The notes below the pieces were generated by a model that did no database searches, was not told the DNA's origin, and worked only from the letters and a program-made list of their open reading frames with translations. From the IMG/VR virus record IMGVR_UViG_3300006805_000139, positions 1 through 25,627 of that record: a stretch of DNA of 25,627 bases, one strand, 5' to 3'. Positions 2,363 through 18,672 of the stretch are shown here, one piece after another (within the stretch, counting starts at the first letter, position 1; each line of letters begins with the position of its first letter). Origin of the DNA: a virus. Position numbers and translations under genes: made by a program.

Positions 2363-2373
2363 TCTAGGACCTG

Positions 2374-5639: not shown

Positions 5640-6112
5640 GGGATGTCGTTCCTCTTGTCGTCGGCGATGGCTTTCAGGAGCGACACCTGAATCAGATGCC
5701 TGTTGTCACGGATCGTGGACGCCAGCGCATCCTCGATGAATCGCTTGGGCTTGATGCCGGGGTACTTCCAGCGCTGATCACGCCAAACCTTCCCCCGGTG
5801 AGGGATGTTGACGTAGCCGGGTGTGCCGACGGTGCCGGGCTTGACGCGGGCGAAGTGCGGTCCGTCGCCCTGCTTGCAGCCCATCGGCACCGTGCGCCCC
5901 TCGGCCCAGTACATGAGGAAGCTCTTGACACCCGAGTTTTGGTAGAGTAGGTGCTTCATGGTCGACCGAATGCCGACCTCACCCTGACCGCTGATCGGCA
6001 TTAGGGCTCCGGAGGACTTCCAGCCGCGACCGGCGACGTCCTGGCGGGCACGCTGGACAGCCAGGTTGCTCAGTGTGGCGCACAGCTCGGAGGGGGCAGG
6101 GACTAGACTCAT
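5627..6112 (-). CDS. Head-tail joining or tail-completion protein (HK97 gp10-like candidate)
   Basis: A 161-residue protein. ATG 6112 overlaps the TGA of the upstream acetyltransferase gene (ATGA); a GTG at 6121 would add three residues. The C-terminal half contains WRDQRWKYPGIKPKRFIEDAL, resembling the closing segment of HK97 gp10-like neck proteins, in which a W-x-Y-P-G-x-[KR] motif precedes a long helix. Such proteins join the head connector to the tail. The next gene overlaps its 3' end, as expected for coupled neck genes. Confidence 0.6.
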   Translation of the reverse strand: MSLVPAPSELCATLSNLAVQRARQDVAGRGWKSSGALMPISGQGEVGIRSTMKHLLYQNSGVKSFLMYWAEGRTVPMGCKQGDGPHFARVKPGTVGTPGYVNIPHRGKVWRDQRWKYPGIKPKRFIEDALASTIRDNRHLIQVSLLKAIADDKRNDIPWLD

Positions 6113-6495
6113 TGGTCCCACACCCCGTCATCCGGAGGCTGTCGATTCCACTTCTTGGGATCGTGACCCTGAGCCTTCGACCAGGCTCGACCGTTAGGTG
6201 TCAGGTTGGTGGAATGCTCTAGCGGACCCACGTTCTGCCGATGCCAATTCAACATGTCGGTCCCCACACCACGCCTGCGATAGTCGGGGTGGACCTGAAT
6301 CATGTCGATGGTTGGGGTCTCGTCACGGCTTGGGCGTAGATAACCAATTTCTTGATCACCGAGGTAACCAAATGTCGATCCCCCTGTGCCCTTGTTCTCG
6401 TACCGGATTCCTTCCGGAAGATCGCCTCGACGCCCAGATTCCCTACTCCACGGAAGAAGCATCTCCGCTTGTTCACGGGCAGTGATGATTCTCAT
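6109..6495 (-). CDS. GNAT-family N-acetyltransferase with shared N-terminal leader
   Basis: A 128-residue protein. Residues 1-16 (MRIITAREQAEMLLPW) form the leader also found on three other proteins in the window. The rest is a compact GNAT fold: an acceptor strand region about 35-55, then IDMIQVHPDYRRRGVGT (63-79) carrying the R-x-x-G-x-G/A acetyl-CoA pyrophosphate-binding loop, and a C-terminal helix-strand LTPNGRAWSKA. GNAT enzymes move an acetyl group from acetyl-CoA to amines such as lysines, N-termini or small molecules; the substrate is unknown here. It is coupled at both ends to neck genes (ATGA overlaps), which suggests virion-linked expression at late times. Confidence 0.8.
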   Translation of the reverse strand: MRIITAREQAEMLLPWSRESGRRGDLPEGIRYENKGTGGSTFGYLGDQEIGYLRPSRDETPTIDMIQVHPDYRRRGVGTDMLNWHRQNVGPLEHSTNLTPNGRAWSKAQGHDPKKWNRQPPDDGVWDQ

Positions 6496-7088
6496 CGAAC
6501 CCTCCCGTCGTAGCGGTCGAACCGCTGACCGATCACAGGGAATTTGCTGATCGGCATGTCGTCAGAGATGCGGTCCAGGTCGGCGATCTGGCTGACGCTA
6601 TCTAGGCTTGTCTGGCCGTGGGCGTTTCCGGTGCGCAACGACTCGTTGGTGACCTGCTTCATGACGTACATGCCGTCAACTTCCAGCACCCGATGATCAG
6701 GGCTCCAGCGGTTCACCCGAATGACGTAGTCGCGCTTCCAGAGGTCCGGCACATGCTCGGTGTGCATACTGGAGGCCATCGGGTGCCACAGACCACGCTT
6801 GGTGAAGCTCTCGTCGTCGTTGGAGTCGGTGAAGATGGCCCATCCTCGATGGACGTCCTTCACCCCACCTTCGAACGTGGTTCCGTAGCACTTCTCGCAG
6901 TCGAAGCGCTCGCCCTGCTTGTAGATGTCGTTCCAGCAGGCCGGGCAGCGCGGCTGCACACCCTCACCCTCGTTGGCATGCCAGAGGTGAATCAGGACGC
7001 ACTCTTCACCGTGACTCATGAGGGAGTCACGGATGGACTGGCGCGCCAGGCGGACGGCGTACGGTTCGATTAGATCAATTCTGCTCAC
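6492..7088 (-). CDS. Neck/head-tail connector candidate with zinc-ribbon insert
   Basis: A 198-residue protein. GTG 7088 is chosen because GAGGGAG lies ten bases upstream; longer readings run through the start region of the divergent HNH gene. Residues 48-67 carry CPAC and CEKC, a four-cysteine zinc ribbon inserted in an otherwise mixed alpha/beta protein. The middle (LWKRDYVIRVNRWSPDHRVLEVDGMYVMKQV) looks like the beta-barrel of head-tail stopper proteins, which close the connector after DNA packaging. It lies between connector and tail-completion genes, which fits. The zinc ribbon is unusual for a neck protein. Confidence 0.6.
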   Translation of the reverse strand: MSRIDLIEPYAVRLARQSIRDSLMSHGEECVLIHLWHANEGEGVQPRCPACWNDIYKQGERFDCEKCYGTTFEGGVKDVHRGWAIFTDSNDDESFTKRGLWHPMASSMHTEHVPDLWKRDYVIRVNRWSPDHRVLEVDGMYVMKQVTNESLRTGNAHGQTSLDSVSQIADLDRISDDMPISKFPVIGQRFDRYDGRVR

Positions 7089-7090
7089 TT

Positions 7091-7105
7091 GAGGTATACT
7101 CCCTC
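7091..7105. promoter_or_regulatory. Palindromic divergent start region (two SD-like GAGG arms and TATACT)
   Basis: The 15-base near-palindrome GAGGTATACTCCCTC lies between the divergent GTG starts at 7088 (minus) and 7109 (plus). Read on the minus strand, GAGGGAG is a well-placed ribosome binding site for the neck gene. Read on the plus strand, GAGG is 14 bases from the HNH start. It also contains TATACT at 7095-7100, a good -10 hexamer that would start plus-strand RNA within a few bases of the HNH GTG. No matching -35 is obvious. Confidence 0.4.
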
Positions 7106-7108
7106 TTC

Positions 7109-7684
7109 GTGAAGGACTGCTCGGTTGCCAATTGCGACGTCCCCGCCCGACGCTGGGGGTTCTGTCCCTCTCACGCCGGTCGGTTCTACCGCCACGGTGA
7201 CCCCTTGGCTGGCACCACCCCAAGGAAACCTAGGGGACTCTCCGAAGAGGATGCCTTCGCCTGGTACATGCCCGGTCCACCACCGGATGACGGGTGCTGG
7301 GATTGGACCGGCGGCACCCTCAAGAGCTACGGCTACGGCGTCGTGGCCTTTGGCGGGACCCAGCACAGAGCACATGTCGTCTCGTATCACATCCACTGCG
7401 GAGAGACCCACGGCCTGTACGTCCTGCACTCCTGTGACCGCCCGATCTGTGTCCAGCCCAAGCACCTCAACCTCGGCTCCCAGGCTAAGAACATGGCTGA
7501 GATGGTCGAACGAGACCGTCATTCCAGAGGGGAAAGAAACGGGCACGCCAAGCTCACCGAGGATGACGTCCGCGCGATTCGGGAAAGCCCGTTGCCTCAA
7601 AGAACCTTGGGTGAGATGTTCGGAATCAATCAGGCGACCGTCAGTCAGATTCGTACTGGTAAGCGCTGGAAGCACATCGAGTAG
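7109..7684 (+). CDS. HNH homing endonuclease
   Basis: A 191-residue protein and the only plus-strand gene. The N-terminus has a zinc knuckle (CSVANC ... CPSH, residues 4-22). The HNH core follows: CWDWTG at 63-68, YGYGVVAF at 74-81, AHVVSYHIHCGE at 88-99, then VLHSCDRPICVQPKHLNLG (105-123) with His107 and Asn121 in catalytic-like positions, and a KNMAEMVERDRHSRGERNGHAKLT linker. Residues 149-187 form a DNA-binding helix-turn-helix (DDVRAIRES ... TLGEMFGINQATVSQIRTGKRW). It starts with GTG and ends six bases from the stop of the converging 416-residue gene. Its orientation against all neighbours marks it as a mobile insertion. Confidence 0.9.
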   Translation: MKDCSVANCDVPARRWGFCPSHAGRFYRHGDPLAGTTPRKPRGLSEEDAFAWYMPGPPPDDGCWDWTGGTLKSYGYGVVAFGGTQHRAHVVSYHIHCGETHGLYVLHSCDRPICVQPKHLNLGSQAKNMAEMVERDRHSRGERNGHAKLTEDDVRAIRESPLPQRTLGEMFGINQATVSQIRTGKRWKHIE

Positions 7685-7689
7685 AGCCA

Positions 7690-8940
7690 TCAGACCACCT
7701 GACCTGGGTGGCTGGGACCGTGGTAGCCCATCTCGTAATAGCTGTCACCGTTATGCCAGAGGTGACTGGCCGGGACGGTGCTCTTGATGACGGGCATGTC
7801 CTGCGAAGGGTCGTCGGGGTGCTGAGCGTGTTGGCGCGCGTACTCCAGCGACGGTGTAACCCAGTCTCCAGTGTTGAAGTTGGTCTTGCCGTGCGGAAGC
7901 GCCCGGTAGACGTCAACCGGCGCGTCAGGGTTGCCCTGGGTGCGCTGGTACATCTGCTGGACCTTGCGCGTCTCAGGCTTACTGACCTCGCCATAGCTGT
8001 AGTAGTGCGGGTGCGTCATCCAGTCAGCGGGCACTCCACCCAGCTCGCCGCCTGTGGCCTCGCCGGTCATGTCATGCAGTGGGAACCCGGAGCCGTCAGG
8101 ACCCGGTGCTCGGTGCTGCATGTGGTAGTCGTCGTCCGATGCCGTGATCGTCCGGCGCGCGTGCAGGTGACGCTGATGGGTCAGCTCGTTGCCGTTGCCC
8201 CAGTCGACATCGTGATAGGTGCCCAAGCCATCGTGCTTGTAGCCGGGGACGCTGTCCTTCATCTGCTGGGCGTAGTCATCATCGCTGACGTACTGAGGAG
8301 GGCTGTGGTGGTCGACGCGGCCACGTTGCCATTGACCTGTCTCGGGGTGCTGACGGAACACGTAGCGCGTCGTCGGGTATTCGTCGCCGACCTGCTCATA
8401 CGGGTGGTTCTGCACCAGCTGCTGAATGTGCTTGCCCAGCGCGGTGTCGTGGTCTACCGGCGCTTCGAAGTCGTCGTCGTCCATGGCGTGCGGGTTGTAA
8501 TTGATGTAGCTGGCCATGTCCGGCTGACTCATCATGTCGGCAGTTTCAGCACGGTGATTACCGTCGGTCAACGTCGCGCCGACGCCATTGGTGCTGACCT
8601 CCACCGGAGGCAGCTTGTGACCTTGACCGGACTCGAACGCGTCCACGATGTCGTCAGAGTTGCGGCTGCCTTCGTCGCCGCCGCCCGAATGAAAGTCGGT
8701 GTCACCCGGCCTGCGGTACGGCTGCGCATCGCCGTCGCTGCTCCACGGTGTGCGGTACAGCGTGTTGAACATGTCCTCCGGGGTGCTGGGAGACGGGTTG
8801 AACTGCCGGTGCTTGAGCAGGTCACTCGTGGGCACCTGGTAGGTCTGGTCGCCGGGCTTGGAGAACCACGGTGCGGCTTCACGCTGCCATGGCGTGAGCA
8901 TCTCGGCTTGCTCACGTGCGGTGACGATTTTGCGTGCCAT
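7690..8940 (-). CDS. Leader-tagged protein with ParB-like and ADP-ribosyltransferase-like segments
   Basis: A 416-residue protein; ATG 8940 overlaps the TAA of the preceding gene (TAATG). Residues 4-18 are the shared leader (KIVTAREQAEMLTPW). Residues 108-132 (HKLPPVEVSTNGVGATLTDG, then NHRAE) match the ParB/sulfiredoxin-like pattern of a strand followed by D-G-N-H-R, a nucleotide- or DNA-binding active site. Residues 342-405 (VDVYRALPHG, GDWVTPSLEYARQHA, then a Y-Y-E-M-G-Y segment) have the order of an ADP-ribosyltransferase: Arg on strand one, a [ST]-x-S segment, and a late Glu (403). The whole is His-, Asp- and Gln-rich. Such a two-domain protein in a virion operon suggests an effector rather than a structural part. 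Activity and targets are unproven. Confidence 0.65.
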   Translation of the reverse strand: MARKIVTAREQAEMLTPWQREAAPWFSKPGDQTYQVPTSDLLKHRQFNPSPSTPEDMFNTLYRTPWSSDGDAQPYRRPGDTDFHSGGGDEGSRNSDDIVDAFESGQGHKLPPVEVSTNGVGATLTDGNHRAETADMMSQPDMASYINYNPHAMDDDDFEAPVDHDTALGKHIQQLVQNHPYEQVGDEYPTTRYVFRQHPETGQWQRGRVDHHSPPQYVSDDDYAQQMKDSVPGYKHDGLGTYHDVDWGNGNELTHQRHLHARRTITASDDDYHMQHRAPGPDGSGFPLHDMTGEATGGELGGVPADWMTHPHYYSYGEVSKPETRKVQQMYQRTQGNPDAPVDVYRALPHGKTNFNTGDWVTPSLEYARQHAQHPDDPSQDMPVIKSTVPASHLWHNGDSYYEMGYHGPSHPGQVV

Positions 8941-9737
8941 TACCAGTGCTCCGGGGCCATGGCCGCGATCTTCTGCGGGCCGAAGCCGCCGTTGTAGATC
9001 AGCGAGCTGTTCTGCCCCTTGGTCTCCGACGCCAGCGCGGGCCGGGCGTGCGGGGAGAACATCTGGGCGTGCGCCAGGTAGGCAGCCTGCTCACCGTGGC
9101 GGTCGAAGCTACGACCGGTAGCCGCATGGCCGAAGAAGTCATGCACCGCGCGGAACTTGTCATTCTCGTCGTTGGAGAAGAATGGGTGGCCGCCGGTTGC
9201 GTGGGTGCCGAGGACCTTCAGCGTCTTGTTGTTGTTGATGTCGTGCAGCATCTCGTGCACGTCCGAGTACGGATCATGGTTAACCATCTGAGTGTTGATG
9301 CCCAGCTGATTGGTCATGAAGTCGTGCTGCTTGTTCAGGTCGTCGCGCATGGCAGCGAAGTGCTTCTCCGCGCCGGGCTGGTAGACCGGCAGGGAGTCGT
9401 AATGCTGGGCGGCAGCCTTCAGCTCACCCGGCTCGCGCCCGGCGTTCAGGTAGTCGATGCTGCCGTTGTGGGGGTCGCTGAGTCCGGCCAGCGAGGCGTA
9501 TGCGCTAGCGCCCTGCTTGGCGATCGGGGACGGCTCGAACGCGTGGTGGAAGGTCCAGCCGGACGGGTCATCGAAGTGAGCTGCGACCCGGTGACCAGAC
9601 AGGATGCGGCCACCCGTGGTGTGCCGGGTTCCGTGCATGTGCTGCTGAAGATCAAGGTCCGGGTGGGTCATCGCGGCGATGCGGACCCAGGGAAGCAACA
9701 TTTCAGCCTGCTCTCGGGCAGTCACGATTCGGCACAT
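8940..9737 (-). CDS. Leader-tagged HDxFGH/ETxGQN-domain protein
   Basis: A 265-residue protein. ATG 9737 overlaps the TAA of the connector-like gene (TAATG). Residues 1-17 are the shared leader (MCRIVTAREQAEMLLPW). The C-terminal half carries FRAVHDFFGHAATG (195-208), RHGEQAAYLAHAQMFSP (213-229) and ALASETKGQN (234-243). From memory, this H-D-x-[FI]-[FG]-G-H, G-E, E-T-[RK]-G-Q-N pattern recurs in multidomain phage and conjugative-element proteins (polyvalent proteins). The His, Asp and Glu spacing would suit metal binding and possibly hydrolysis. I cannot name an activity. Coupled translation with the connector implies high late expression. Confidence 0.6.
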   Translation of the reverse strand: MCRIVTAREQAEMLLPWVRIAAMTHPDLDLQQHMHGTRHTTGGRILSGHRVAAHFDDPSGWTFHHAFEPSPIAKQGASAYASLAGLSDPHNGSIDYLNAGREPGELKAAAQHYDSLPVYQPGAEKHFAAMRDDLNKQHDFMTNQLGINTQMVNHDPYSDVHEMLHDINNNKTLKVLGTHATGGHPFFSNDENDKFRAVHDFFGHAATGRSFDRHGEQAAYLAHAQMFSPHARPALASETKGQNSSLIYNGGFGPQKIAAMAPEHW

Positions 9738-10729
9738 TAGACAGGACCTCCAGCCACCAGGTTTCCGACCGTGATGGCGAACTGAGCGGGATAGAAACGG
9801 AACGATCGTGTTTGCTGGGCGTACAGGCCGGGGATGAAGAATCCACCCTTCATGCCGCCGCCGTAGATGCCACCAGCGACCAGCAGCGAACCGCGACCCA
9901 GGTTCAGCAGGGAGCGCTTGGCCATCTTGATGGCCTTCTCGTAGGTCGCCTCTTCTTCTTCCAGCACGCGGTACCAGCGTTCGCTGTAGTCGCGGCGGTC
10001 GGTGTAGGTGACCTGCATGTTCCGGAAGTCGGGCTGCTCGGTGTAGCTCAGCGCCAGGTGCCGGATGCATTCGAGCTTGGTGCCCCAGACGATGAGCTGG
10101 TTGAAGTTGGCGGGAATCTTCTTCATCCCGGCTTCGATCTCCATGCCGTACGCCGTCACGGGGTACCCCAGCAGGTTGAACTTCATCACCGCCTGAGCGC
10201 TCAGCTGGGCGATGCGCTCGTAGGTGAAGTGGGTCTGAAAGTTCTCCTGCAGCCAGGGGCCACCGGCAGTCGAGTCGAACATATCGCCGAAGAACCAGGA
10301 CACCTGTTCTACGATCATCTTGCCCTCGGGGCGCAGGCTCTCGTAGTAGGGCATCTGCTCCAGGATTTGCATGTCGTCCTGGTAGGTGAACTCGGTACCG
10401 GCGACCTTGTAGGCCCACTCGGCGTGCAGCAGACCAACCCGCTTGGTCCACTCGGGGCCGATGTCGAAGTGGTACATGCCGGTGCCGTCGTTGACGATGC
10501 CGGTGCCCGGCGTGCCGGTGACGATCTGGACGCCACGCGGGTCCGGTGCGGTGCCTGAGAGGTCATCGAACCAGACGGTGACCACCAGGGTGTTGTCGTC
10601 GGCGTTGACGGGTGCGCCGCCCGCGTCGAAAATGCCGATGGCCATGTAGCCACGGCTGTTCTGGGACACGAACTTGCGTGCGACCGCGCGGTCCCGCAGC
10701 TTGGGGCTGAAAGGGTCAGTGATGGTCAC
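9737..10729 (-). CDS. Head-tail connector / virion structural protein candidate
   Basis: A 330-residue protein beginning at GTG 10729, two bases after the preceding TGA with no clear SD of its own, so probably made by reinitiation. Residues 25-115 form an immunoglobulin-like beta sandwich (FDAGGAPVNADDNTLVVTVWF through LLHAEWAYKVAGTEFTYQDD). Residues 120-280 are mostly helical (YERIAQLSAQAVMKFNLLGY, RRDYSERWYRVLEEEEATYEKAI), and the C-terminus is glycine-rich (GGIYGGGMKGGFFIPGLY). A strand domain followed by a helical bundle, placed upstream of neck genes, suits an adaptor attached to the portal. No motif proves it. Confidence 0.5.
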   Translation of the reverse strand: MTITDPFSPKLRDRAVARKFVSQNSRGYMAIGIFDAGGAPVNADDNTLVVTVWFDDLSGTAPDPRGVQIVTGTPGTGIVNDGTGMYHFDIGPEWTKRVGLLHAEWAYKVAGTEFTYQDDMQILEQMPYYESLRPEGKMIVEQVSWFFGDMFDSTAGGPWLQENFQTHFTYERIAQLSAQAVMKFNLLGYPVTAYGMEIEAGMKKIPANFNQLIVWGTKLECIRHLALSYTEQPDFRNMQVTYTDRRDYSERWYRVLEEEEATYEKAIKMAKRSLLNLGRGSLLVAGGIYGGGMKGGFFIPGLYAQQTRSFRFYPAQFAITVGNLVAGGPV

Positions 10730-10732
10730 GGG

Positions 10733-12352
10733 TCACACTCGAATGTAGGCGAGATCGATGCGGCTGTTGATCCTGGACGCGCTGTCGAACCAGGTGAAAA
10801 TCTGATCGATGATGTTGCCGCTGGCGGTGTAGCGCACCTTGACAGTGAGCACGTCGTTGGTGTTGAAACGCAGCTGGCCGTTGACGTCCAGTGTCTGGCT
10901 GAAGCCGGGGTTGAATCCGCCGCCGCGCATGAACTGCTGCTTGCGGATGGTGGTCTCGATGCCGTTGATGCACAGCACGACGTGGGCGACGTCCGGGGTC
11001 ACCGACGGGTTCCACTGGATGGCCACCTTGACGTCGTAGAGGCCGGGCTCCTTCATCACGATGTCGGTCTTGTTGGCCGTGTTGAAGAAGTCGAAGTCGT
11101 CTTCCAGCTCGTCGCTCCACTCCACCAGCGAACCGGCGGAGACCAGCTTCTGGTTTGCCGACTGGCGCAGGCGGACCACAGGAATCTTGCCGACGGGCAG
11201 AACCGTCCAGCGGTTGGTGGCGACGTAGTAGACGAGGTCCTGGATACGGACCCACTGCTCGTTGGCCGGGGTGGTCTGACCAAAGCCTCGCTGGCCGACC
11301 TTCATGCCGATGCCCCAGCCTCGGTTGCCAGCGCCCTTGTTGGAGGCGTTCTGGGTGTCCACCACGCTGCCCATGAACTCGCCAGCGCGGTACAGCGACA
11401 AGGTGCGTCCCACCAGCTGGGCCCGCCACACGAGGTTGACGGTTCCGGCGGCGACGCCAGGCAGGGTGCCGAGAACCTTCTCATTGGCCTTGCCGGTAGT
11501 GGTGTAGTAGATGGTCGCACCATCGTGGCCGACGGCCAGACGCCAGTACGACTGCTTGGTGTCATCCATGCGGAAGTACTTGTCATTGCTGGCGGGCGAG
11601 GTGAAGATCGAATCGATATCTTCGATGGCGATGTTGCCGGTCTGCCAGGTAATGACCTGGTCATCGGTCTGGGTGACGGCGTCGACAGGGTTGATGCGCC
11701 GGGTGAATCCCCGGTTGGTCCAGCCAGACTGATCGGTCCACGACAGGTTCTGGCCGTCCGGGGTGCCCATCTTGCCGTGCGTCAGGTCGCCTGTGTCGTA
11801 CTCGACGGCTTCCCAGTTGGTGAGCGAGAGGTCGCCTGCGCCCTGATCGAAGTTGTCGATCGAGTTCAGCCCGGCGACGGGTTCGGTGGGGGCGAAGCTG
11901 CCCCACACGCGCACGCGGTCGGTGTCGGTCTCGTAAATCTGCAGGCCCTTGTAGGGCTCAGCTGGCCGCGTCAGCGACGTGCAGATGACGTAGGGGCGAT
12001 TGAGTAGCCGGGAACCGTCATTGTAGTCGTGGACGTGGTTGCCCTTGGCAGCCTGATTCTCGGTCTCACCCAGGGTGTGGTGCATGGCCGAGTGCGCCGA
12101 GTCGGTGTCGGCTTCCTCGTGGGTATAGACCTGCTTGAGCTTGGCACCCTTGCTGATGTCTGCCGGGTCGCCAGAGTGATCGTGGCCCTTGAGCGCAGCG
12201 TTATGCTGCAGGGCCTCGATGGCGTCACCCTCGTCAGTGTGAAGCTGGGGGTGGTTGCGCGTCGCACCGGGACCCGCCTGAGAAAGCGGGGTGTCTTCCG
12301 GAGCGGTAGTGACGCTGAAGTCGTCAAACCCCTCGGGGTAATTGGTTGGCAC
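10733..12352 (-). CDS. Fibre/appendage protein with His-rich head and TNF-like C-terminus
   Basis: A 539-residue protein; GTG 12352 has AGGAGAC nine bases upstream. Residues 30-110 are His-rich, with GHDHSG (56-61) and GNHVHDY (104-110). Such H-x-H motifs bind iron or zinc along trimeric phage fibres. The middle (about 190-370) resembles a concanavalin-like beta-sandwich (WEAVEYDTGD, SYWRLAVGHDGATIYYTTTG, GRTLSLYRAGEFMGSVVDT). The last 150 residues (YDVKVAIQWNPS, VVLCINGIETTI, LRFNTNDVLTVKVRY, IDLAYIRV) look like a C1q/TNF-type jelly roll, a common trimeric receptor-binding tip. It is therefore probably an adhesin or decoration fibre. It lies between neck genes and small structural genes, away from the tape measure region where fibres often lie. 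Confidence 0.7.
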   Translation of the reverse strand: MPTNYPEGFDDFSVTTAPEDTPLSQAGPGATRNHPQLHTDEGDAIEALQHNAALKGHDHSGDPADISKGAKLKQVYTHEEADTDSAHSAMHHTLGETENQAAKGNHVHDYNDGSRLLNRPYVICTSLTRPAEPYKGLQIYETDTDRVRVWGSFAPTEPVAGLNSIDNFDQGAGDLSLTNWEAVEYDTGDLTHGKMGTPDGQNLSWTDQSGWTNRGFTRRINPVDAVTQTDDQVITWQTGNIAIEDIDSIFTSPASNDKYFRMDDTKQSYWRLAVGHDGATIYYTTTGKANEKVLGTLPGVAAGTVNLVWRAQLVGRTLSLYRAGEFMGSVVDTQNASNKGAGNRGWGIGMKVGQRGFGQTTPANEQWVRIQDLVYYVATNRWTVLPVGKIPVVRLRQSANQKLVSAGSLVEWSDELEDDFDFFNTANKTDIVMKEPGLYDVKVAIQWNPSVTPDVAHVVLCINGIETTIRKQQFMRGGGFNPGFSQTLDVNGQLRFNTNDVLTVKVRYTASGNIIDQIFTWFDSASRINSRIDLAYIRV

Positions 12353-12377
12353 CCTGTCTCCTTCTGGTCAGGCTGAG

Positions 12378-12417
12378 TTCCCGGCGGGGTAGAGGGTCGC
12401 CCTACCCACGCCGGGAA
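12378..12417 (-). terminator. Long GC-rich hairpin upstream of the fibre gene (terminator or RNA processing site)
   Basis: A perfect 9-bp outer stem (TTCCCGGCG at 12378-12386 with CGCCGGGAA at 12409-12417) encloses an inner stem (GGGTAG at 12387-12392 with CTACCC at 12402-12407) and a 9-base loop, with one unpaired base. There is no T-run downstream on the minus strand, so it may be a U-less terminator, an attenuator or a processing and stabilising element. It fills most of the space between the 90-residue gene and the 539-residue fibre gene. Confidence 0.55.
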
Positions 12418-12435
12418 GCATGTGGCCGGGAAGGG

Positions 12436-12708
12436 TTACAGCACGCCCTCGTCAAGATCAGGACGCTTCTTGATGGAGCGCGAGTCCTGCTCGTTGCGGT
12501 AGTAATCCCGGTGTGCGAAGACATCCGGACGCGGGTTCGACGGCGGGTAGTGCCCGGTGTTGCGGGCACGCTGCAGCGAGTCGTTCTCCGCTTCCAACGC
12601 CTTTGGCGACGGGTCAGCTACGGCAGTCAGGATCGTCTCTCCCCGACCGGGGTTGCGATCGAACTGCCGGGTCTGCCAAGTCAGCTTGGGACGGTCTGTT
12701 CCTGCCAT
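12436..12708 (-). CDS. Small hypothetical protein (90 residues), possibly virion-associated
   Basis: ATG 12708 is preceded by AAGGAGAT at a normal distance. The protein is hydrophilic and basic, with many Arg, Asp, Pro and Asn residues (RQFDRNPGRG, TGHYPPSNPRPDVFAHRDYY, RSIKKRPDLDEGVL) and little predicted hydrophobic core. It follows the 206-residue structural gene by 21 bases and is followed by a strong hairpin, so it ends a short transcription or processing unit. I recognise no family. It resembles other short, disordered proteins scattered among structural genes. Confidence 0.65.
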   Translation of the reverse strand: MAGTDRPKLTWQTRQFDRNPGRGETILTAVADPSPKALEAENDSLQRARNTGHYPPSNPRPDVFAHRDYYRNEQDSRSIKKRPDLDEGVL

Positions 12709-12729
12709 GCTGGTTTATCTCCTTCGGGG

Positions 12730-13350
12730 TTACCCGCCCGCTGGAAGATTGCTCTTCACGGTGGGCTGGATGGACGACAGCTGGTGCGTCCAGCTGTTGT
12801 CGGCTTGTGGCGTCGACACCACGCGCCAGGCTTCGCTCTGGTGCTCTGGGCACAGCGGCGGCGCACCTTCAGCGCGCTCCTGCTCGGTCTGGAAGATGGA
12901 CTCGCCACCGATGATGCAGCGCGGCTGGACGGTCTGACCGTAGGTGCGGCTGGTCGGATCGTTGTCGATGTCGACCGAAAGGCTGTTCTTGCCCTGCGGC
13001 TGCAGAATCTGCGGCTCGACGTTGCTCCAGGTGCCGTCCTCGTTCTGGACCTGCGCCTTCGGGGCCTGTTCGATCTGGCCACCCATGAGAAGAGTGATCT
13101 CGTTCTCCATGTCCTCGTCGTCGGAGATGGTGACGTGCTTCTTCATCCACAGGCGCTGAAAGCCGGGGACGTTAAGGCACTCCTTCGGGACGATGCGGAT
13201 GGAGTCGTCGCGACCGGCGGGCTCCAGTTCAAAGCTGATGGTGTCGGTGTTGCACGTGATCTTGTGCGGGGTGTTGTTCTTGGCGAACAGCGTGCCGTTC
13301 GATTCACGCAGTGCACGCAGGGACTTCCGCTGCGCAGTAGGTGTGGTCAC
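12730..13350 (-). CDS. Virion-associated protein, paralogue of the 162-residue protein at 15519-16007
   Basis: A 206-residue protein. I chose GTG 13350 because AAGGAGACC lies seven bases upstream; the longer reading from ATG 13392 has no SD. Residues 21-88 align without gaps to residues 22-89 of the protein encoded at 15519-16007, with about 27 of 68 identical, including L-[YF]-A-[RK]-N-x-T, D-S-I and P-G-F-x-R-L-W. This points to duplication. The C-terminal half differs and contains a lone C-P-E-H. The shared domain is probably a small beta module of a tail or capsid accessory protein. It lies between fibre-type genes. Confidence 0.65.
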   Translation of the reverse strand: MTTPTAQRKSLRALRESNGTLFAKNNTPHKITCNTDTISFELEPAGRDDSIRIVPKECLNVPGFQRLWMKKHVTISDDEDMENEITLLMGGQIEQAPKAQVQNEDGTWSNVEPQILQPQGKNSLSVDIDNDPTSRTYGQTVQPRCIIGGESIFQTEQERAEGAPPLCPEHQSEAWRVVSTPQADNSWTHQLSSIQPTVKSNLPAGG

Positions 13351-13374
13351 CTCGGTCTCCTTCACTTGAGGGGC

Positions 13375-13390
13375 GAAGCCCGCAGGCTTC
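13375..13390 (-). other. Small hairpin in the leader of the 206-residue gene
   Basis: GAAGCC at 13375-13380 pairs perfectly with GGCTTC at 13385-13390 around a four-base loop, in the 75-base gap upstream of the GTG at 13350. No T-run follows. It may stabilise or delimit the mRNA, or be chance. Confidence 0.3.
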
Positions 13391-13425
13391 ATCCATTCAC
13401 GGTGCTGCGAAGGAGGTTGGCAGGA

Positions 13426-14088
13426 TCAGGCAGCGATGAGATCAACACCAGCTGCTGCGACACTCTGAGAGCTGCTGGTGGTAAACGACACGGCTCCCGT
13501 GACGGCGGTGACGCCACGGTCGCCGATCAGGTTGTTGTCGCTGTCCTGGGTCTCGCGGTTGTTCCAGTTCCATCCGGTCTCGGCACCACCAGCGGTGACG
13601 CCGATGAAGGGCATGTTGCCCGCTGTCGAAGTAATGGACAGGTTCACTGTCGCGCTACCGGTGGTGGTCTGCGTGGCCAGGTTCTGGTAGCCGACGACGT
13701 TGCCGTAGAACGCCGCCAGAACGTTCGCCCGAGTGAACGCCTGCGAAGCCTGAATGTTGCCGGTGAGTGTGTGGGTGCCCAATACGGGGTCTTGGCAGTA
13801 GAACAGGATGACGTGACCCCGCCGCTGCCCGGACGGGCCGCGCACCGTGTCGGAGCTGGGAATCTCAGTGAACACCGAGCCGAGGTTGCTGGTGACGGTC
13901 TTGGCGGTGTACGTGTTGTTCCAGTTGGTGTGTCGACCGGTCAGCGCGACGATGGCACCGCCGGTTTGAGCGACCACCAGCGTGCACGTGGGGCTCATGT
14001 TCGAGCCGCCCGTGGTTGTCGTTCCCGAGCCGGAAGCCAGGAACACCGGAGGCGGGGCCTTGACCGGCCTGAGCAAACCGAACGGCAT
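13426..14088 (-). CDS. Thr/Ser-rich structural protein, probable tail appendage
   Basis: A 220-residue protein whose ATG (14088) overlaps the TGA of the previous gene (TGATG). It is rich in Thr, Ser, Gly and Ala, with alternating beta strands (TCTLVVAQTGGAIVALTGRHT, SATVNLSITSTAGNMPFIGV, GAVSFTTSSSQSVAAAGVDLIAA), typical of an extracellular jelly-roll or beta-sandwich. The Ser/Thr-rich composition and ending match proteins that decorate phage tails or capsids. Coupling to the preceding 158-residue beta protein suggests that the two work together, perhaps as stacked parts of one fibre. Confidence 0.6.
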   Translation of the reverse strand: MPFGLLRPVKAPPPVFLASGSGTTTTGGSNMSPTCTLVVAQTGGAIVALTGRHTNWNNTYTAKTVTSNLGSVFTEIPSSDTVRGPSGQRRGHVILFYCQDPVLGTHTLTGNIQASQAFTRANVLAAFYGNVVGYQNLATQTTTGSATVNLSITSTAGNMPFIGVTAGGAETGWNWNNRETQDSDNNLIGDRGVTAVTGAVSFTTSSSQSVAAAGVDLIAA

Positions 14089-14564
14089 CAGGACGCCGTC
14101 ACATTCACGGTGCCGACCAGCACCGCGCTGAAGCCTGCTCCGGGTGTGGTGCCGATGGCTGAGATGTAGGGACGCAGGACGTCGCCAGCGCTAATCGCCT
14201 GGGACAAGCCTGTGACGCGAACATTGCTGCCGTAGGTCCACTGATTGGCTGCCGTAACAGACAGCGAGGAGCCGGTGATGGTGGAGCCGTTGCGGCGCAC
14301 CTCGACCGTGGTTGAACCGCTGGCGTCTGCGCTGATGCCTCGGTAAACGATCTCGGTCAGGGTGAATGCCGCAGGGATGGTGAGACCCATCTGGTTGTCG
14401 CCGTACCCCACAGCCCTGACGGCGTACGTGGCATGAATCTCGAACCACACCGGGACCGCCGCTGTCTTCGTGGTTCCGTCCACGTACTGCTTGCTGGTGG
14501 CGTGGGCGGCGTTGGTCGGGGTGAGGGGAACCTTGATCTGGCTGGAAACAGACTTTGCTGTCAT
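14088..14564 (-). CDS. Short fibre-type protein with attachment-like N-terminus
   Basis: A 158-residue protein; ATG 14564 follows AAAGGCGACC. Residues 10-30 (IKVPLTPTNAAHATSKQYVDG) match the D-A-A-[TN]-K-x-Y-V-D linker repeat common in phage tail fibres. The remainder is a beta-sandwich (FEIHATYAVRAVGYGDNQMG, TTVEVRRNGSTITGSSLSV, GFSAVLVGTVNVTAS) resembling a C1q-like or head-binding tip. The same linker motif occurs in the longer neighbouring fibre, so both may attach through homologous trimeric stems. Confidence 0.65.
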   Translation of the reverse strand: MTAKSVSSQIKVPLTPTNAAHATSKQYVDGTTKTAAVPVWFEIHATYAVRAVGYGDNQMGLTIPAAFTLTEIVYRGISADASGSTTVEVRRNGSTITGSSLSVTAANQWTYGSNVRVTGLSQAISAGDVLRPYISAIGTTPGAGFSAVLVGTVNVTAS

Positions 14565-14595
14565 GTGGTCGCCTTTGCTGTGTCAGCTGCGATGA

Positions 14596-15504
14596 TCAGC
14601 CCTTGGCCTTCCAGACGACACAGTGGTACTGGTTGGACGACCAGACCTCGTCCGGCTCGACGGAGATGGTGTTGATGGTTGGACGCGCCACGTACACGTC
14701 GACCTCGTCGTATGGGCTGGCGTTGCGGAACACGGCGACGCCGACGGCCTTGGTGCCGAAGTTGTGCGTCACGGTGAAGGATGTGGCCGAACCGTCACCC
14801 AGGTCCAGTTCATACGGAGCGGTGCCCGCCGGGGTGCTGCTAATGAACACGACAGCCATGGTGTCGGTGCCCAACGTGAAGCTGCCGTTGGTCATCAGGG
14901 CGAAGTTGTCGGCCTTGGTGCCCTCGCGGACGATCCAGTAGGAGCCCAGGACGGCCTCACCCGAGGTGTCCCAGTTGGCTGCGCGGGTCATCGCGGTAGC
15001 CGAACCATTGAAGATGTACGAGCCGTTCTGGCTGCCGGTGGTCTGGGCAGTCAGCAGGACGAGATCACCGTTGGTCATGGTGACGCCGTCGACCGTGGTG
15101 CCCGGCGTGGCGATGTTGACGTTGGCGGTCGACGCCACACGAACGGTGCCCTTGGGGGTCTGCCCGGACACCAGACCGGTCAGCTGCGCGTCCACATAAG
15201 CGCGGGTGGCGGCGTCCTGAGCGCTGGTCGGGTCAGCCACCGAGGTCAGACGCTGAGAGCCCATGCCGACCGGGTTGGTCGGGGTGGCCATCTGATCCAG
15301 GCGACTGGTGCGGACCTGGGTGTCGAAGTTGCTGATGGTCGACGCCGTCTGGGTGCCGGTGTGGTTGGCGCGGCTGATGGCGTTGGTGTACGACGTGTCG
15401 ACGTCGGTCTTGCGAGCAGCATCGTTAGGATTGCTAGGTGCACCCAGGTTGACGATCTTCTTGCTGTTCATGTCCTTCTGGGAAGCGGACAGGCGTGCAG
15501 TCAT
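14596..15504 (-). CDS. Tail fibre protein with tail-fibre repeats
   Basis: A 302-residue protein; ATG 15504 has TAGGAGA about ten bases upstream. Two fibre repeats are visible: NSKKIVNLGAPSNPNDAARK-TDVD at residues 13-36 and MGSQRLTSVADPTSAQDAAT-RAYVD at 81-104, both of the form K-I-x-N-L-x-x-P-x-x-x-x-D-A-A-x-[KR]-x-x-V-D. ANHTGTQTASTISNFDTQV (46-64) is another classic fibre segment. Residues 112-225 form a beta domain with repeated N-G-D-L-V-L-L and NGSYIF motifs, and 230-302 a terminal beta-sandwich (TSFTVTHNFGTKAVGVAVF). The protein probably forms a trimeric stalk with a tip for surface binding. Confidence 0.85.
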   Translation of the reverse strand: MTARLSASQKDMNSKKIVNLGAPSNPNDAARKTDVDTSYTNAISRANHTGTQTASTISNFDTQVRTSRLDQMATPTNPVGMGSQRLTSVADPTSAQDAATRAYVDAQLTGLVSGQTPKGTVRVASTANVNIATPGTTVDGVTMTNGDLVLLTAQTTGSQNGSYIFNGSATAMTRAANWDTSGEAVLGSYWIVREGTKADNFALMTNGSFTLGTDTMAVVFISSTPAGTAPYELDLGDGSATSFTVTHNFGTKAVGVAVFRNASPYDEVDVYVARPTINTISVEPDEVWSSNQYHCVVWKAKG

Positions 15505-15518
15505 GTGTTTGCTATCTC

Positions 15519-16007
15519 CTAGAACACGGTGGCGACGAAGGTGAGTGGGTCATCGGTGGAGACCCGACAGGTGTTGGGGGTGATCATCTCGGTGAAGAAA
15601 TCGGTGTACTCGGTGTTGCCGTCCAGGCTGAACATAACGACCTTCACCGGTCCGGTCCGATTCAGATCATGCGGGATGACCGTGACCGACTGCGGGGTGT
15701 TCTGGGTGTGCACGTACGGAGCGAACGGCTTGGCAGCCGGAAGCTCGGTGATCAGCTCGGCGAAGTCCGGGTCTAGCGAGACCTCGGCGTACCCGCGCGT
15801 CCACAATCGGGTGAAGCCGGGAGACTTGGCGACAGTCCACGGCAGCGGCTGAATGGAGTCCGGGTCACCCTTGGGCTGCAGCTGCCAGCGGATACGCCCC
15901 AGGTTGAAGGTGATCGGCTGCCGGGTCAGGTTACGGGCGTAGAGGTCCGGGCGCGGCGCATACCCGTCAGGGTCCTGCTCCAGCTCATACACCAGCTCTA
16001 CGGACAC
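15519..16007 (-). CDS. Virion-associated protein, paralogue of the 206-residue protein at 12730-13350
   Basis: A 162-residue protein from GTG 16007, with GGAGGGCGG eight bases upstream. That SD lies inside the 3' arm of a 10-bp hairpin (16011-16056). Residues 22-89 are a gapless match to the 206-residue protein (about 27 of 68 identical; shared L-[YF]-A-[RK]-N, P-x-G-x-x-D-S-I and P-G-F-x-R-L-W). The C-terminal part (SVTVIPHDLNRTGPVKVVMF, TEYTDFFTEMITPNTCRVST) looks like a small beta-sandwich. A role in the virion, perhaps as a fibre adaptor, is inferred from position immediately before the tail fibre gene. Confidence 0.65.
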   Translation of the reverse strand: MSVELVYELEQDPDGYAPRPDLYARNLTRQPITFNLGRIRWQLQPKGDPDSIQPLPWTVAKSPGFTRLWTRGYAEVSLDPDFAELITELPAAKPFAPYVHTQNTPQSVTVIPHDLNRTGPVKVVMFSLDGNTEYTDFFTEMITPNTCRVSTDDPLTFVATVF

Positions 16008-16010
16008 GAA

Positions 16011-16056
16011 ACCGCCCTCCTATCTGCTACCTCTTCAGGGCAGACGGGAGGGCGGT
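16011..16056 (-). promoter_or_regulatory. SD-sequestering hairpin before the 162-residue gene
   Basis: ACCGCCCTCC at 16011-16020 is fully complementary to GGAGGGCGGT at 16047-16056, with an inner TCTGC/GCAGA stem (16023-16027 with 16040-16044). On the minus-strand RNA the 3' arm is GGAGGGCGGT, the ribosome binding site of the gene starting at 16007. Folding would hide it. No T-run follows, so translational control or RNA processing is more likely than termination. Confidence 0.6.
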
Positions 16057-16070
16057 GACAGGGTTACTGG

Positions 16071-16310
16071 TTAGACGGCTGCCTTGTTCACCGTGGGCAT
16101 CACGGTTCCACGCACGGGGCGCTTGATGTGCAGCTTGCGGATGCCGATCACACGGGCGTTGGGGAGCACAGCTTCTCCCTTGGTGCCACGGGTGGCTGGA
16201 TCAAGGATGAAGTTAGCGATGTCCTCGGGGCTGTCGCCTTCCGGGGCGCTAACAATCACCCGCTGGTCCCGACCTTCACGATCGGCGAGCGTCACCATGT
16301 AGGTGTCCAT
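16071..16310 (-). CDS. Small hypothetical protein (79 residues)
   Basis: ATG 16310 is preceded by GAAGGAGACC, a strong SD. It is the first gene after the terminator at 16434-16463 and so probably the first gene of a transcript. The sequence begins YMVTLADREGRDQRVIVSAP and ends with a basic segment (RKLHIKRPVRGTVMP), with a small alpha/beta pattern and an acidic loop (EGDSPEDIANFIL). It may be a small ubiquitin-like or ferredoxin-like fold. I recognise no family. Confidence 0.7.
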   Translation of the reverse strand: MDTYMVTLADREGRDQRVIVSAPEGDSPEDIANFILDPATRGTKGEAVLPNARVIGIRKLHIKRPVRGTVMPTVNKAAV

Positions 16311-16328
16311 GCCGGTCTCCTTCGTTTC

Positions 16329-16348
16329 GGAAACTCGTTTGAGTTTCC
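16329..16348 (-). promoter_or_regulatory. 5' leader hairpin GGAAACTC/GAGTTTCC
   Basis: A perfect 8-bp stem with a four-base loop ends about six bases before the AAGGAGA ribosome binding site of the 79-residue gene. Placement near the 5' end of the presumed transcript suggests an RNA-stabilising or processing element. Confidence 0.5.
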
Positions 16349-16368
16349 TCTATACGGATATTGTGCGT

Positions 16369-16397
16369 CTTCTACACGGTTTGCGCAACATTGGCAA
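16369..16397 (-). promoter_or_regulatory. Possible sigma70-type promoter after the terminator (weak)
   Basis: On the minus strand TTGCCA (16397-16392) is followed after 17 bases by TAGAAG (16374-16369). It sits between the terminator and the 79-residue gene, where a promoter is needed if termination is efficient. The -10 match is only fair; other hexamers such as CAATAT and TATAGA lie just downstream. Confidence 0.35.
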
Positions 16398-16433
16398 CTG
16401 TGATTCACCTGAAATATCCGGTCCCGGAGATAC

Positions 16434-16463
16434 AAAACACCCCCGGTCCGAGGACCGGGGGTG
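16434..16463 (-). terminator. Rho-independent terminator
   Basis: CACCCCCGGTCC (16438-16449) and GGACCGGGGGTG (16452-16463) form a perfect 12-bp GC-rich stem. Read on the minus strand it is followed by TTTTGTAT, so it terminates leftward transcription from the genes above 16559. The 248-base gap 16311-16558 holds this terminator, the promoter candidate, the leader hairpin and otherwise nothing recognisable. Confidence 0.85.
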
Positions 16464-16558
16464 CTTGTGCTTCGCTGATGCAGATCAGCTTAGCAAGTGG
16501 GGCTTTCGCCCGCTTCCCACCCACGGGAAGGCCTTAATCGTAGCAGATCAAACCACCA

Positions 16559-16894
16559 CTAAGCACCATCGTCCTGCTGCTGAGCCGCGACGATGTGGGA
16601 CAACTCACGGTCGCTCGTGCGAGCCACTTCGATGAGCTGCTTGGGCTTCCAGGCCGGGTTGCCCTTGGGAGCCTTCACGCGATCCTCAGCGGTCACCGAG
16701 ACGTACGGCGGGGCTGCCAGGGCGTCGTTGTCGATGCCCTGCTCCTCGGTCACTGGAACGTTGGTCCGCTTGTTGAAGGCGTTGCCGTCCTCCAGGCTGT
16801 GGTCGCCGGGGTTGGGCAGCTCTCCAGACCCCTCCGCGATCGTGACGATCGGGGGCGGGGTACTGCTCGGAGAGTTCGGGATGACCAGGCTCAT
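16559..16894 (-). CDS. Hypothetical hydrophilic protein (111 residues)
   Basis: ATG 16894 overlaps the TAA of the preceding small gene (TAATG), with AGGTGAC as SD inside it. The protein is proline- and serine-rich at the start (SPSSTPPPIVTIAEGSGELP) and then acidic and disordered, with a more ordered helical end (PAWKPKQLIEVARTSDRELSHIVAAQQQ). The final segment could be a short DNA- or protein-binding helix pair. It is the last gene before the terminator at 16434-16463. I recognise no family. Confidence 0.65.
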   Translation of the reverse strand: MSLVIPNSPSSTPPPIVTIAEGSGELPNPGDHSLEDGNAFNKRTNVPVTEEQGIDNDALAAPPYVSVTAEDRVKAPKGNPAWKPKQLIEVARTSDRELSHIVAAQQQDDGA

Positions 16895-17106
16895 TACACG
16901 TCACCTGGGTCCGACTCGAACTTCACCGGCTTGGTCCAGCCGCGCACGACGGTCTTCTTCACCGGGCCCGTGGGGGTCTCGATGGTGATCGTCTGCGTGT
17001 TGGCCGGGTTGCCGGGCGCGCTGGAGCGCCAGAACTCCTTGGGCACCATGTTGGCAGTGGGGTACTCCGGTGGCGCACCGTAGTGCTGTTCAACCTTCAT
17101 CGTCAT
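16894..17106 (-). CDS. Small hypothetical protein (70 residues)
   Basis: ATG 17106 is preceded by AAGGAGAGC, an excellent SD. It is hydrophilic with a beta-hairpin-like centre (TQTITIETPTGPVKKTVVRGW) and an N-terminal EYPTANMVPKEFWRSS segment. It is coupled to the following gene by TAATG and follows the 517-residue gene by 12 bases. The function is unknown. Confidence 0.65.
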   Translation of the reverse strand: MTMKVEQHYGAPPEYPTANMVPKEFWRSSAPGNPANTQTITIETPTGPVKKTVVRGWTKPVKFESDPGDV

Positions 17107-17118
17107 GTCGTGCTCTCC

Positions 17119-18672
17119 TTACTTCAGTAGACCGGCAACCATGGACAAGGTGTCCTGAACCGAATGGACGGGGACCTCGAACGCCGCCATGTGAGCCTGC
17201 ATGGCCATCGCGGCATCGCCGTTCTCGCGAGGATGCTGGCTAACCCACCCGCGTAGCCATTTGTCCCAGACGCCGCCGTGCACCAGGGCGGTGTGCAGCG
17301 ATCCTTGGACCGGCGGCAGGTTGCGCTTGTGTCGCCACTGGCTCGGTGGCGGCATCTCCGGACGCCGTGGGTCTTGCCACTCACCGGGGTCGCCCTGCTG
17401 GTAACGCGGGATTGGGTTATTGAGCGGGTTCTTCGTGCCCCACTCCTGCTCGACCTGTTGTGGATCGCGGCCACGGTTCTTCGGGGCGTCCAGGACCTTC
17501 TGCAGACCCTTGGGGCGCTCACCGGGGGCTACGGAGCCAGCACCACGGCCAGCAGCATCTACGTCGGCCTTGAACTTGCCCCAGGGGCCAGCCTGAGTCT
17601 GCTTCGGCACCTGGTGCTTACCGGGGTCCTGCTGCATCTCGTTGATGCGGCGTGTGGCCTCCCAGGACGCCCGAGCATGCAGATCGTAGGCCAGGTCCTG
17701 GCGCTTGCCGCCGATGCTCATGTCATTGAGCTTGGTGAAGTGCTCAGGGGTGGAGTAAACCGCGTTCGACAGGTCGGCCCCATGTGGGGTCATCTGCAGC
17801 CGGGCGTGGTGAGTGTCCACCGTGGTGGCCTGGTCGGGATGCATGCGCCAGTCCGGTTCACCGCTGTACGGGTTGACCGGGTGCTCGTAGTACCCGTTGT
17901 CGTCTTCCACGCCGGGACGCGGGGGACGGAAGTCGGCGGGGTCCATGATGTTGCTGAAGAAGGCCTTGGTTTTCGGGCCACCGAGTACCGTGCGGGGGTC
18001 CTCACCGTGGTAGATGCGCTTGGCGTCGTTGACCTGGCCGCTCAGGGTCGGCATGGTGAAGTCCGGATTGGAGCCGTCGTAGTTGGCCGCGAAGTGCGTG
18101 CCGTGCTCGATGTTCTCGTCCCAGGACTTGCGCGGGCTGAACGCCGAGAAGGTCGACACGACGCGGGGGTGGTCGCCGTGGGTCTTGTCGGCGACGTCCT
18201 TGGTCAGGTCGTGTGCGGCGCGGTACCAGACGCGACCGTCGTAGTCCTGGTCGGGTGTCTGAGCCAAGTGGTGCGAGACGTGGTTGTTGACCAGGTCTTC
18301 GAAGCTGCGACCGGTACCGTTCAGAACACCCCACGGGTCGTTGACGGGGTCCTCGGAGGCGTTGACACGCTCGATGAGCCCGGCGTTGCGCTTGGGGTGC
18401 AGTCCGGCCTCGGACGGGTGCATGACATCGCTCTCCATGGGAGGACGCGTGTCCGAATGGAAAGCTCCGCCGTCGGTGGCTCCACGCCAGTCGCTCTTCA
18501 TCCACGGGGCGTCTTCGGCTGCCGGGTTGGGGCGCGGGGTCTGGTGTCCGTATGCGGAAGTGTCGCCGCCTCGGCCACCGGGAGCATGAGCGCGCGGGTC
18601 CATGTCCAGGGCCTGACGCAACCACGCATTCGACATGGTGGCCTGGTCACGAGCGGATACGAAAGTACGCAT
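17119..18672 (-). CDS. Leader-tagged 517-residue protein with a possible DNA-glycosylase-like core
   Basis: ATG 18672 has a GGGAGAG SD that lies inside an 11-bp hairpin. Residues 1-17 (MRTFVSARDQATMSNAW) are a diverged copy of the shared leader. Residues 25-90 are disordered. Residues 149-291 contain WYRAAHDLTKDVAD, VVSTFSAFSPRKSWDENI, GGPKTKAFFSNIMDP and TTVDTHHAR. This order, with S-P-[RQ]-x-S-W-D-x-N, then K-[TV]-x-[AS]-F-x-x-N-I and [VI]-D-[TR]-H-A, recurs in actinophage proteins and resembles a helix-hairpin-helix glycosylase fold; I recall this rather than derive it. The C-terminal 180 residues are Pro/Arg/Gln-rich, ending in a helical segment. It is probably a virion-carried or DNA-acting protein; its activity is unknown. 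Confidence 0.6.
   Translation of the reverse strand: MRTFVSARDQATMSNAWLRQALDMDPRAHAPGGRGGDTSAYGHQTPRPNPAAEDAPWMKSDWRGATDGGAFHSDTRPPMESDVMHPSEAGLHPKRNAGLIERVNASEDPVNDPWGVLNGTGRSFEDLVNNHVSHHLAQTPDQDYDGRVWYRAAHDLTKDVADKTHGDHPRVVSTFSAFSPRKSWDENIEHGTHFAANYDGSNPDFTMPTLSGQVNDAKRIYHGEDPRTVLGGPKTKAFFSNIMDPADFRPPRPGVEDDNGYYEHPVNPYSGEPDWRMHPDQATTVDTHHARLQMTPHGADLSNAVYSTPEHFTKLNDMSIGGKRQDLAYDLHARASWEATRRINEMQQDPGKHQVPKQTQAGPWGKFKADVDAAGRGAGSVAPGERPKGLQKVLDAPKNRGRDPQQVEQEWGTKNPLNNPIPRYQQGDPGEWQDPRRPEMPPPSQWRHKRNLPPVQGSLHTALVHGGVWDKWLRGWVSQHPRENGDAAMAMQAHMAAFEVPVHSVQDTLSMVAGLLK

What the first reader, a model, noticed from the sequence alone, without database searches (positions are those of the whole stretch)
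6444..18672. One N-terminal leader peptide on four unrelated phage proteins: candidate virion-packaging tag
The starts of the genes at 6495, 8940, 9737 and 18672 (all minus) encode MRIITAREQAEMLLPW, KIVTAREQAEMLTPW, MCRIVTAREQAEMLLPW and MRTFVSARDQATMSNAW. After the leader the proteins share nothing I can see: a GNAT, a ParB-like/ADP-ribosyltransferase-like protein, an HDxFGH protein and a 517-residue protein. In the first three, T-A-R-E-Q-A-E-M-L is unchanged, yet the codons for T, A, R, E, Q, A, E and L all vary between copies by synonymous changes. That pattern argues for selection on the peptide, not recent duplication. T4 internal proteins carry an N-terminal capsid-targeting sequence removed by the prohead protease, and T4 injects an ADP-ribosyltransferase. 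I infer an analogous system for loading effectors into the head.
Basis: partly seen in the sequence, partly recalled or inferred. Interest (0 to 1): 0.88.

Follow-up and report, generated by a model that had tools for sequence, protein, structure and literature searches.

The report
Shared N-terminal tag on phage effectors
A group of large bacteriophages of mycobacteria and their relatives puts the same ~20-residue tag on the front of many otherwise unrelated enzymes encoded beside its capsid genes, probably to load them into the virus head for injection into the host; the tag is certain, its job is inferred.

Summary
The window is part of a Ceeclamvirinae-like myovirus (relatives: Mycobacterium phages ScoobyDoobyDoo, Myrna, I3, Tonenili). 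All four genes begin with the leader and are otherwise unrelated. I found 47 non-redundant leader-bearing ORFs; in every one the leader is N-terminal. Consensus: M-(x)-R-R-[IV]-[VI]-[TS]-A-R-[ED]-Q-x-E-[ML]-L-[SA]-P-W-R-[TR]-A-A, then conservation stops. It is conserved as peptide (mean pN 0.23, pS 0.66). Cargo includes GNAT, ParB-like, ADP-ribosyltransferase-like, SprT-like, glutaredoxin and DUF7178 domains, reshuffled between phages. The leader is found in about 200 of 50,697 phage records, all in genera whose phages carry this major capsid protein (215 records); an exact pattern finds none in 84,980 bacterial/archaeal genomes. With one clear exception, copies lie 0.3-23 kb downstream of the capsid gene. 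These phages encode a prohead protease; their inner proteins are enriched in R-T-A-A, the motif that ends the leader. Best reading: a capsid-targeting signal for injected effectors, working like the T4 CTS but without detectable homology to it. I found no virion proteomics, so packaging and cleavage remain inference.

The parts
18613..18672 (-). leader (20 aa) of the DUF7178 protein, divergent copy MRTFVSARDQATMSNAWLRQ
   Evidence: homologs of the same protein carry canonical leaders (L031, L024, L061)
17119..18672 (-). 517-aa leader protein: DUF7178 (PF23802), phrog_2878; weakly DNA-glycosylase-like by fold, not significant
9672..9737 (-). leader (22 aa) MCRIVTAREQAEMLLPWVRIAA
8940..9737 (-). 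265-aa leader protein with conserved VHDFFGHAATG motif, phrog_3170; AlphaFold2 model folded from about residue 60, leader low-confidence; no PDB match
8872..8940 (-). leader (23 aa) MARKIVTAREQAEMLTPWQREAA; start codon overlaps upstream stop (TAATG)
7690..8940 (-). 416-aa leader protein: ParB-like half (phrog_3131) fused to an ART-like half (phrog_2579, labelled 'ParB C-terminal domain')
   Evidence: ART and ParB assignment from motifs, not significant Pfam hits
6436..6495 (-). leader (20 aa) MRIITAREQAEMLLPWSRES
6109..6495 (-). 128-aa leader protein: GNAT acetyltransferase (PF13508 above its cut-off)
24947..25627 (-). C-terminal part of the large inner protein (Myrna gp97 homolog, phrog_2774) whose N-terminal domain in complete relatives is a head maturation protease; the protease domain itself lies outside the window
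24352..24897 (-). homolog of the Myrna gp98 minor capsid protein
   Evidence: PMC7150772
23336..24346 (-). major head protein (phrog_2522)
9737..10729 (-). conserved neighbour (Myrna gp118 homolog, phrog_2791) on one side of a cargo slot
6492..7088 (-). conserved neighbour (Myrna gp119 homolog, phrog_2806) between two cargo slots
5627..6121 (-). conserved neighbour (Myrna gp120 homolog, phrog_2819) on the other side of the GNAT slot

Best explanation
The leader is a portable head-targeting signal. Effector proteins made late, from variable gene slots beside the head genes, dock through this ~20-residue, probably helical N-terminus to the prohead core (scaffold, protease-linked inner protein or portal). 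They are enclosed before DNA packaging and are delivered into the next host with the DNA. The prohead protease probably trims the leader near its R-[T/R]-A-A end. Shown: shared N-terminal peptide under purifying selection, unrelated and reshuffled cargo, restriction to phages with one capsid type, location downstream of the capsid gene, a prohead protease in the same phages. Inferred: packaging, the docking partner, cleavage and injection.
For: (1) Every one of 47 non-redundant copies is N-terminal. (2) Peptide-level selection: mean pN 0.226 and pS 0.664 over all pairs, all synonymous codons used. (3) The leader is separable from cargo: homologs lack it (I3 gp129 looks decayed), and the ART-like half sits directly behind the leader in Phabba but behind ParB in the window. 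(4) Cargo looks like injected effectors: GNAT, Arr-like ART, SprT-like, ParB_N, glutaredoxin; one 1021-aa protein combines leader, Arr-like, SprT-like and several GNAT domains. Iyer et al. 2017 (PMC5512222) already proposed capsid deployment for a solo GNAT of phage Alice, a relative. (5) Capsid link: about 200 phage records with the leader, only Mycobacterium/Mycolicibacterium and Gordonia phages, against 215 with this capsid protein; all 12 capsid-bearing records tested have leaders; none in T4, P1 or SPN3US. (6) Copies lie 0.3-23 kb downstream of the capsid gene on the same strand with one clear exception, in slots between conserved gp118/gp119/gp120 homologs. (7) Head maturation protease in the large inner protein. 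(8) Inner proteins are enriched in RTA (44 seen, 6.2 expected) and RxAA (51 versus 15) with local shuffling in a set not used for discovery; portals and other structural proteins are not or only weakly. (9) Small modules are shared between leader proteins and the protease-linked protein (E=6e-5 and 3e-5). (10) AlphaFold2 puts the leader outside the folded domain, as a low-confidence helix.
Against: No virion proteomics; no direct test of packaging. Leaderless ParB-like and GNAT genes occur in comparable places in I3 and Tonenili, so the leader is not required for a gene to sit there. One leader-bearing ART-like gene is about 54 kb from the capsid gene and on the opposite strand (G003:62307; its homolog in G010 is also beside non-structural genes). 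Only about half of the leader ends match R-x(1,2)-A-[AEMDSV] (26 of 47), and homologous sites were counted more than once in the enrichment test. Rhodococcus phage Finch has a related capsid (78% identity) and no leader, so the tag is not needed for the capsid.
Confidence: 0.64

Rival explanations
1. The leader sends proteins somewhere other than the prohead, for example to the tail tube or baseplate, the cell membrane or a replication site, or it is a docking motif for one phage or host partner inside the infected cell. The cargo would act late in infection and not be injected.
For: Virion location is unproven; one leader ART-like gene lies among non-structural genes on the other strand.
Against: Restriction to phages with one capsid type and location downstream of the capsid gene; module sharing with the protease-linked inner protein; RTAA enrichment in the same inner proteins; nucleic-acid- and protein-modifying cargo of the class proposed to be injected (PMC5512222).
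Confidence: 0.17
2. The leader is an ejection or tail-passage signal: it is needed for the protein to leave the head through the portal, while packaging depends on something else.
For: An extended helical N-terminus separate from the folded domain would suit this; several cargo proteins are very large (up to about 1,200 aa).
Against: A leader removed in the prohead, as the RTAA pattern suggests, could not act at ejection; leaderless homologs persist in the same phages' relatives.
Confidence: 0.09
3. The leader is a recombination relic: cassettes swap through a shared 5' end, and the peptide itself does nothing.
For: Cargo is clearly swapped between slots and phages.
Against: DNA identity is too low to serve as an anchor (synonymous sites near saturation, pS 0.66), while the peptide is held.
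Confidence: 0.05

Closest known systems
T4 capsid-targeting sequence (CTS) of internal proteins IPII/IPIII with gp21 prohead protease (PMC9958956)
   Same: Short N-terminal peptide shared by otherwise different proteins; phage with a prohead protease; an ART (Alt) is among T4's head-packaged, injected proteins (PMC5512222)
   Different: No match of the leader profile anywhere in T4; twice as long (about 20 versus ~10 aa); 47 found here over many phages, 1-6 per genome, often multidomain; targeting and cleavage shown only in T4
Polyvalent proteins of phages and conjugative elements (Iyer et al. 2017, PMC5512222)
   Same: Multidomain combinations of ART, ParB-like, GNAT and metalloprotease-like modules, proposed to be carried in the capsid; that paper names a GNAT of phage Alice, a relative
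   Different: In the passages read, the paper describes no common short N-terminal tag; most leader proteins here are small; Pfam ART-PolyVal only weakly matched (E=0.067)
Short N-terminal propeptides of SPN3US head proteins (gp45, gp225) cut by gp245 (PMC10052503)
   Same: 20- and 24-residue N-terminal pieces on head proteins of a large myovirus
   Different: SPN3US cleavage is after A-x-E; the leader has A-R-[ED] but not strictly E (42 E, 5 D of 47), and the enriched motif here is R-T-A-A; no leader match in SPN3US

Membership tests
T4 CTS | short peptide at the extreme N-terminus of several different proteins | tested here: met
   47 of 47
T4 CTS | sequence homology to the T4 tag | tested here: not met
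   no leader match at E<=10 in the whole T4 genome
T4 CTS | phage encodes a prohead protease | tested here: met
   phrog_18299 in 10 of 16 records, including all complete genomes tested; outside the window itself
T4 CTS | tag removed by the protease | tested here: inconclusive
   RTAA at the leader end matches a motif enriched in inner proteins; no cleavage data
T4 CTS | tag is sufficient to bring a foreign protein into the head | not testable with these tools
   needs an experiment
Polyvalent proteins | several disparate enzymatic domains in one polypeptide | tested here: met
   L046:3449-6511 Arr-like + SprT-like + several GNAT; L057:619-2103 ParB-like + ART-like + glutaredoxin; several others are single-domain
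Polyvalent proteins | match to the Pfam domain named for them (ART-PolyVal) | tested here: inconclusive
   E=0.067, below the curated cut-off
Polyvalent proteins | carried in the virion and injected | not testable with these tools
   no proteomics found
SPN3US gp245 propeptides | cleavage motif A-x-E strictly kept | tested here: not met
   D replaces E in 5 of 47

The most novel reading that the evidence does not exclude
A modular virion effector-loading system: one ~20-residue address tag, cut at R-T-A-A by a protease fused to an inner-head protein, lets a whole lineage of actinobacterial myoviruses swap diverse toxins and enzymes in and out of the capsid by plugging genes into fixed slots.
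Probability: 0.4. Interest if true: 0.85.

Novelty: new variant of a known kind. Interest (0 to 1): 0.72.

Why it matters
If true, it gives a simple sequence rule for recognising injected effectors in a much-studied, largely unannotated phage group (many of these ORFs are filed as 'hypothetical protein'), a tag that could be tested for loading chosen proteins into mycobacteriophage heads, and a second, apparently independent example of a T4-like capsid-targeting sequence. It also points to host functions that these phages attack first.

Tried and rejected
The first pattern without PW gave mostly chance internal matches. AREQ as an A-x-E cleavage site of the SPN3US type was considered and dropped, because D replaces E in 5 of 47. 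Leader as DNA-level signal: rejected, codons are free to vary. Leader as part of a single domain family: rejected. Foldseek against PDB gave nothing significant for the 9737 and 18672 proteins; the 8-oxoguanine glycosylase match for 18672 has probability 0.14 only. Sequence search of PDB with the ParB-ART and HDxFGH profiles: no hits. Literature searches for cluster C virion proteomics and for the leader string found nothing; subscription papers are not held.
Full report
What the window is. The window matches Mycobacterium phage Myrna best by DNA (33% covered, 78% identity), then ScoobyDoobyDoo, Phabba and Bixzunavirus members. Its major head protein is 94.6% identical to that of ScoobyDoobyDoo. 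It runs on the minus strand from the end of the large inner protein (24947-25627) through minor and major capsid proteins, tail-fibre-like and head-decoration genes to the tail sheath (3398-4870) and the tail assembly chaperone. IMG/VR holds it as a 25,627-base virus record.

The observation. All four leaders are real and start at the given positions. A profile search shows a clean gap between true copies (E<=2e-7) and chance (E>=0.33). The four proteins show no similarity to one another beyond the leader. Among the three close copies the differences are mostly synonymous (pN 0.07-0.14, pS 0.68-0.98); over all 1,035 pairs mean pN is 0.226 and pS 0.664. The region is conserved as a peptide.

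How wide it is. Degenerate DNA scans of IMG/VR and a PSSM over all loci gave 50 leader-bearing ORFs, 47 after removing near-duplicates; all have the leader at the N-terminus after 1-5 residues. More were seen later in ScoobyDoobyDoo and CherryTomatoes. Phrappuccino gp57 starts with a divergent form, VKRIITHREQAEAMQWWQQGAIMRTAARD, seen by eye and not scored by the profile; it carries a zeta-toxin-like domain (PF06414, E=4e-17). Counting residues by position, information is high from R-R through R-[TR]-A-A and falls to 0.5 bits or less from position 19. An exact pattern found no match in 84,980 bacterial and archaeal species genomes; this is a strict pattern and would miss divergent copies. tblastn of the leader against 50,697 phage records found 199-200 records, all Mycobacterium/Mycolicibacterium or Gordonia phages, to be compared with 215 records holding the capsid protein. 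The two sets were compared by genus counts, not record by record.

Separable from its cargo. Homologs of the HDxFGH protein in L071 (upstream of a portal gene) and L072 have no leader. I3 gp129, a homolog of the ParB-like half of the 8940 protein, begins MSLGDRSQIYAGRRQHQATPWRSKPGD where a relative (L057) has MTRRIVTAREQYDMLAPWLREATPWRSKPGD, which looks like a decayed leader. The ART-like half stands directly behind the leader in Phabba, behind a different insert in Skog, and behind ParB in the window. The AlphaFold2 models of the 265- and 517-residue proteins place the leader as a low-confidence helix outside the folded part.

Cargo. Pfam assigns GNAT above its cut-off to 6495 and to several others; DUF7178 to the 18672 family; glutaredoxin to L057; below cut-off but consistent are Arr-like ADP-ribosyltransferase, SprT-like and ParB_N. 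The assignment of ART to the C-terminal half of the 8940 protein rests on motif reading, since PHROGs label it 'ParB C-terminal domain'. The polyvalent-protein paper makes the same kind of proposal, capsid deployment, for a solo GNAT of phage Alice (PMC5512222).

Link to the head. In the records examined, the capsid protein (phrog_2522) was found in 12 of 16; of the four without it three are leader-bearing fragments of 33-53 kb and one is a chance pattern match without a leader. Distances from capsid gene to leader are 0.3-23 kb on the same strand, except G003:62307. In six annotated relatives the gp118, gp119 and gp120 homologs are conserved, and leader genes sit between them in the window, Skog, ScoobyDoobyDoo and CherryTomatoes, while Myrna and Tonenili have none there and I3 has the leaderless ParB gene. 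In the window 9737 and 8940 start with a TAATG stop-start overlap. Finch, with a related capsid, has no leader, so the tag is an accessory.

Protease and processing. The large protein upstream of the capsid genes carries a head maturation protease domain (Myrna gp97 residues 58-213, phrog_18299 E=9e-18; 10 of 16 records). Only its C-terminal end is inside the window. gp87, gp96 and gp97 homologs are enriched in RR.A, R.AA and R[VT]A (z 7-10), other structural and early proteins are not (z about -0.4 to 2.1), and the cargo after the leader is in between (z about 4 for R.AA and R[VT]A). In 20 ORFs not used for finding the motif, R-T-A was the most enriched triple (44 versus 6.2) with local composition held; portals gave z -1 to 2.8. 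Homologous sites recur across phages, so the z-scores overstate independence. The leader ends in the same motif in about half of the copies (26 of 47). I take this as a lead for a cleavage site, not as proof. Two leader proteins share small modules with the protease-linked protein.

Verdict. The tag is established. That it targets proteins to the prohead is the best reading (0.64); cleavage at R-T-A-A is roughly even odds. It works like the T4 CTS (PMC9958956) but is not shown to be a member: sequence homology was tested and not met.

Noticed in passing
window 7109-7684 (+): HNH endonuclease gene on the opposite strand, inserted between the 8940 gene and the gp119 homolog, probably a free-standing homing-type endonuclease.
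   Followed up: partly
window 22298-23167, 2841-3734 and 1745-2377 (-): Three ORFs; the first two match endonuclease/resolvase-type PHROGs and the third resembles them by eye, looking like mobile nuclease genes scattered in the structural block.
   Followed up: partly
L009:7807-8466 and L009:8466-9242 (+): Two neighbouring ORFs, the first transglycosylase-like and the second hydrolase-like by eye, share a different N-terminal stretch (DSHYEqMAxxEeNRGGYKAPKQQVxPGVPSGY), perhaps a second shared head or tail address region.
   Followed up: no
L004:1701-5336 (Myrna gp97), L009:718-4431 and homologs: The protein that carries the prohead protease has a variable middle: methyltransferase-like in Myrna, L5 gp82-like in L009, with endolysin/tape-measure-like PHROG matches also seen.
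   Followed up: partly
C-terminus of gp97 homologs, window 24947-25627 (-): Conserved C-terminal end R-[VTS]-A-A-N-x-x-x-N-D-x-L-x-F-G, again containing the RxAA motif.
   Followed up: no
L009:107-700 and Myrna gp96 C-terminus: Shared C-terminal segment SLxEQ..L..E....GARNLxxLDLRGTHYE in gp96-type inner proteins.
   Followed up: no
window 19214-22261 (-): 1015-aa tail-fibre-like protein with a long collagen-like G-P-x repeat.
   Followed up: no
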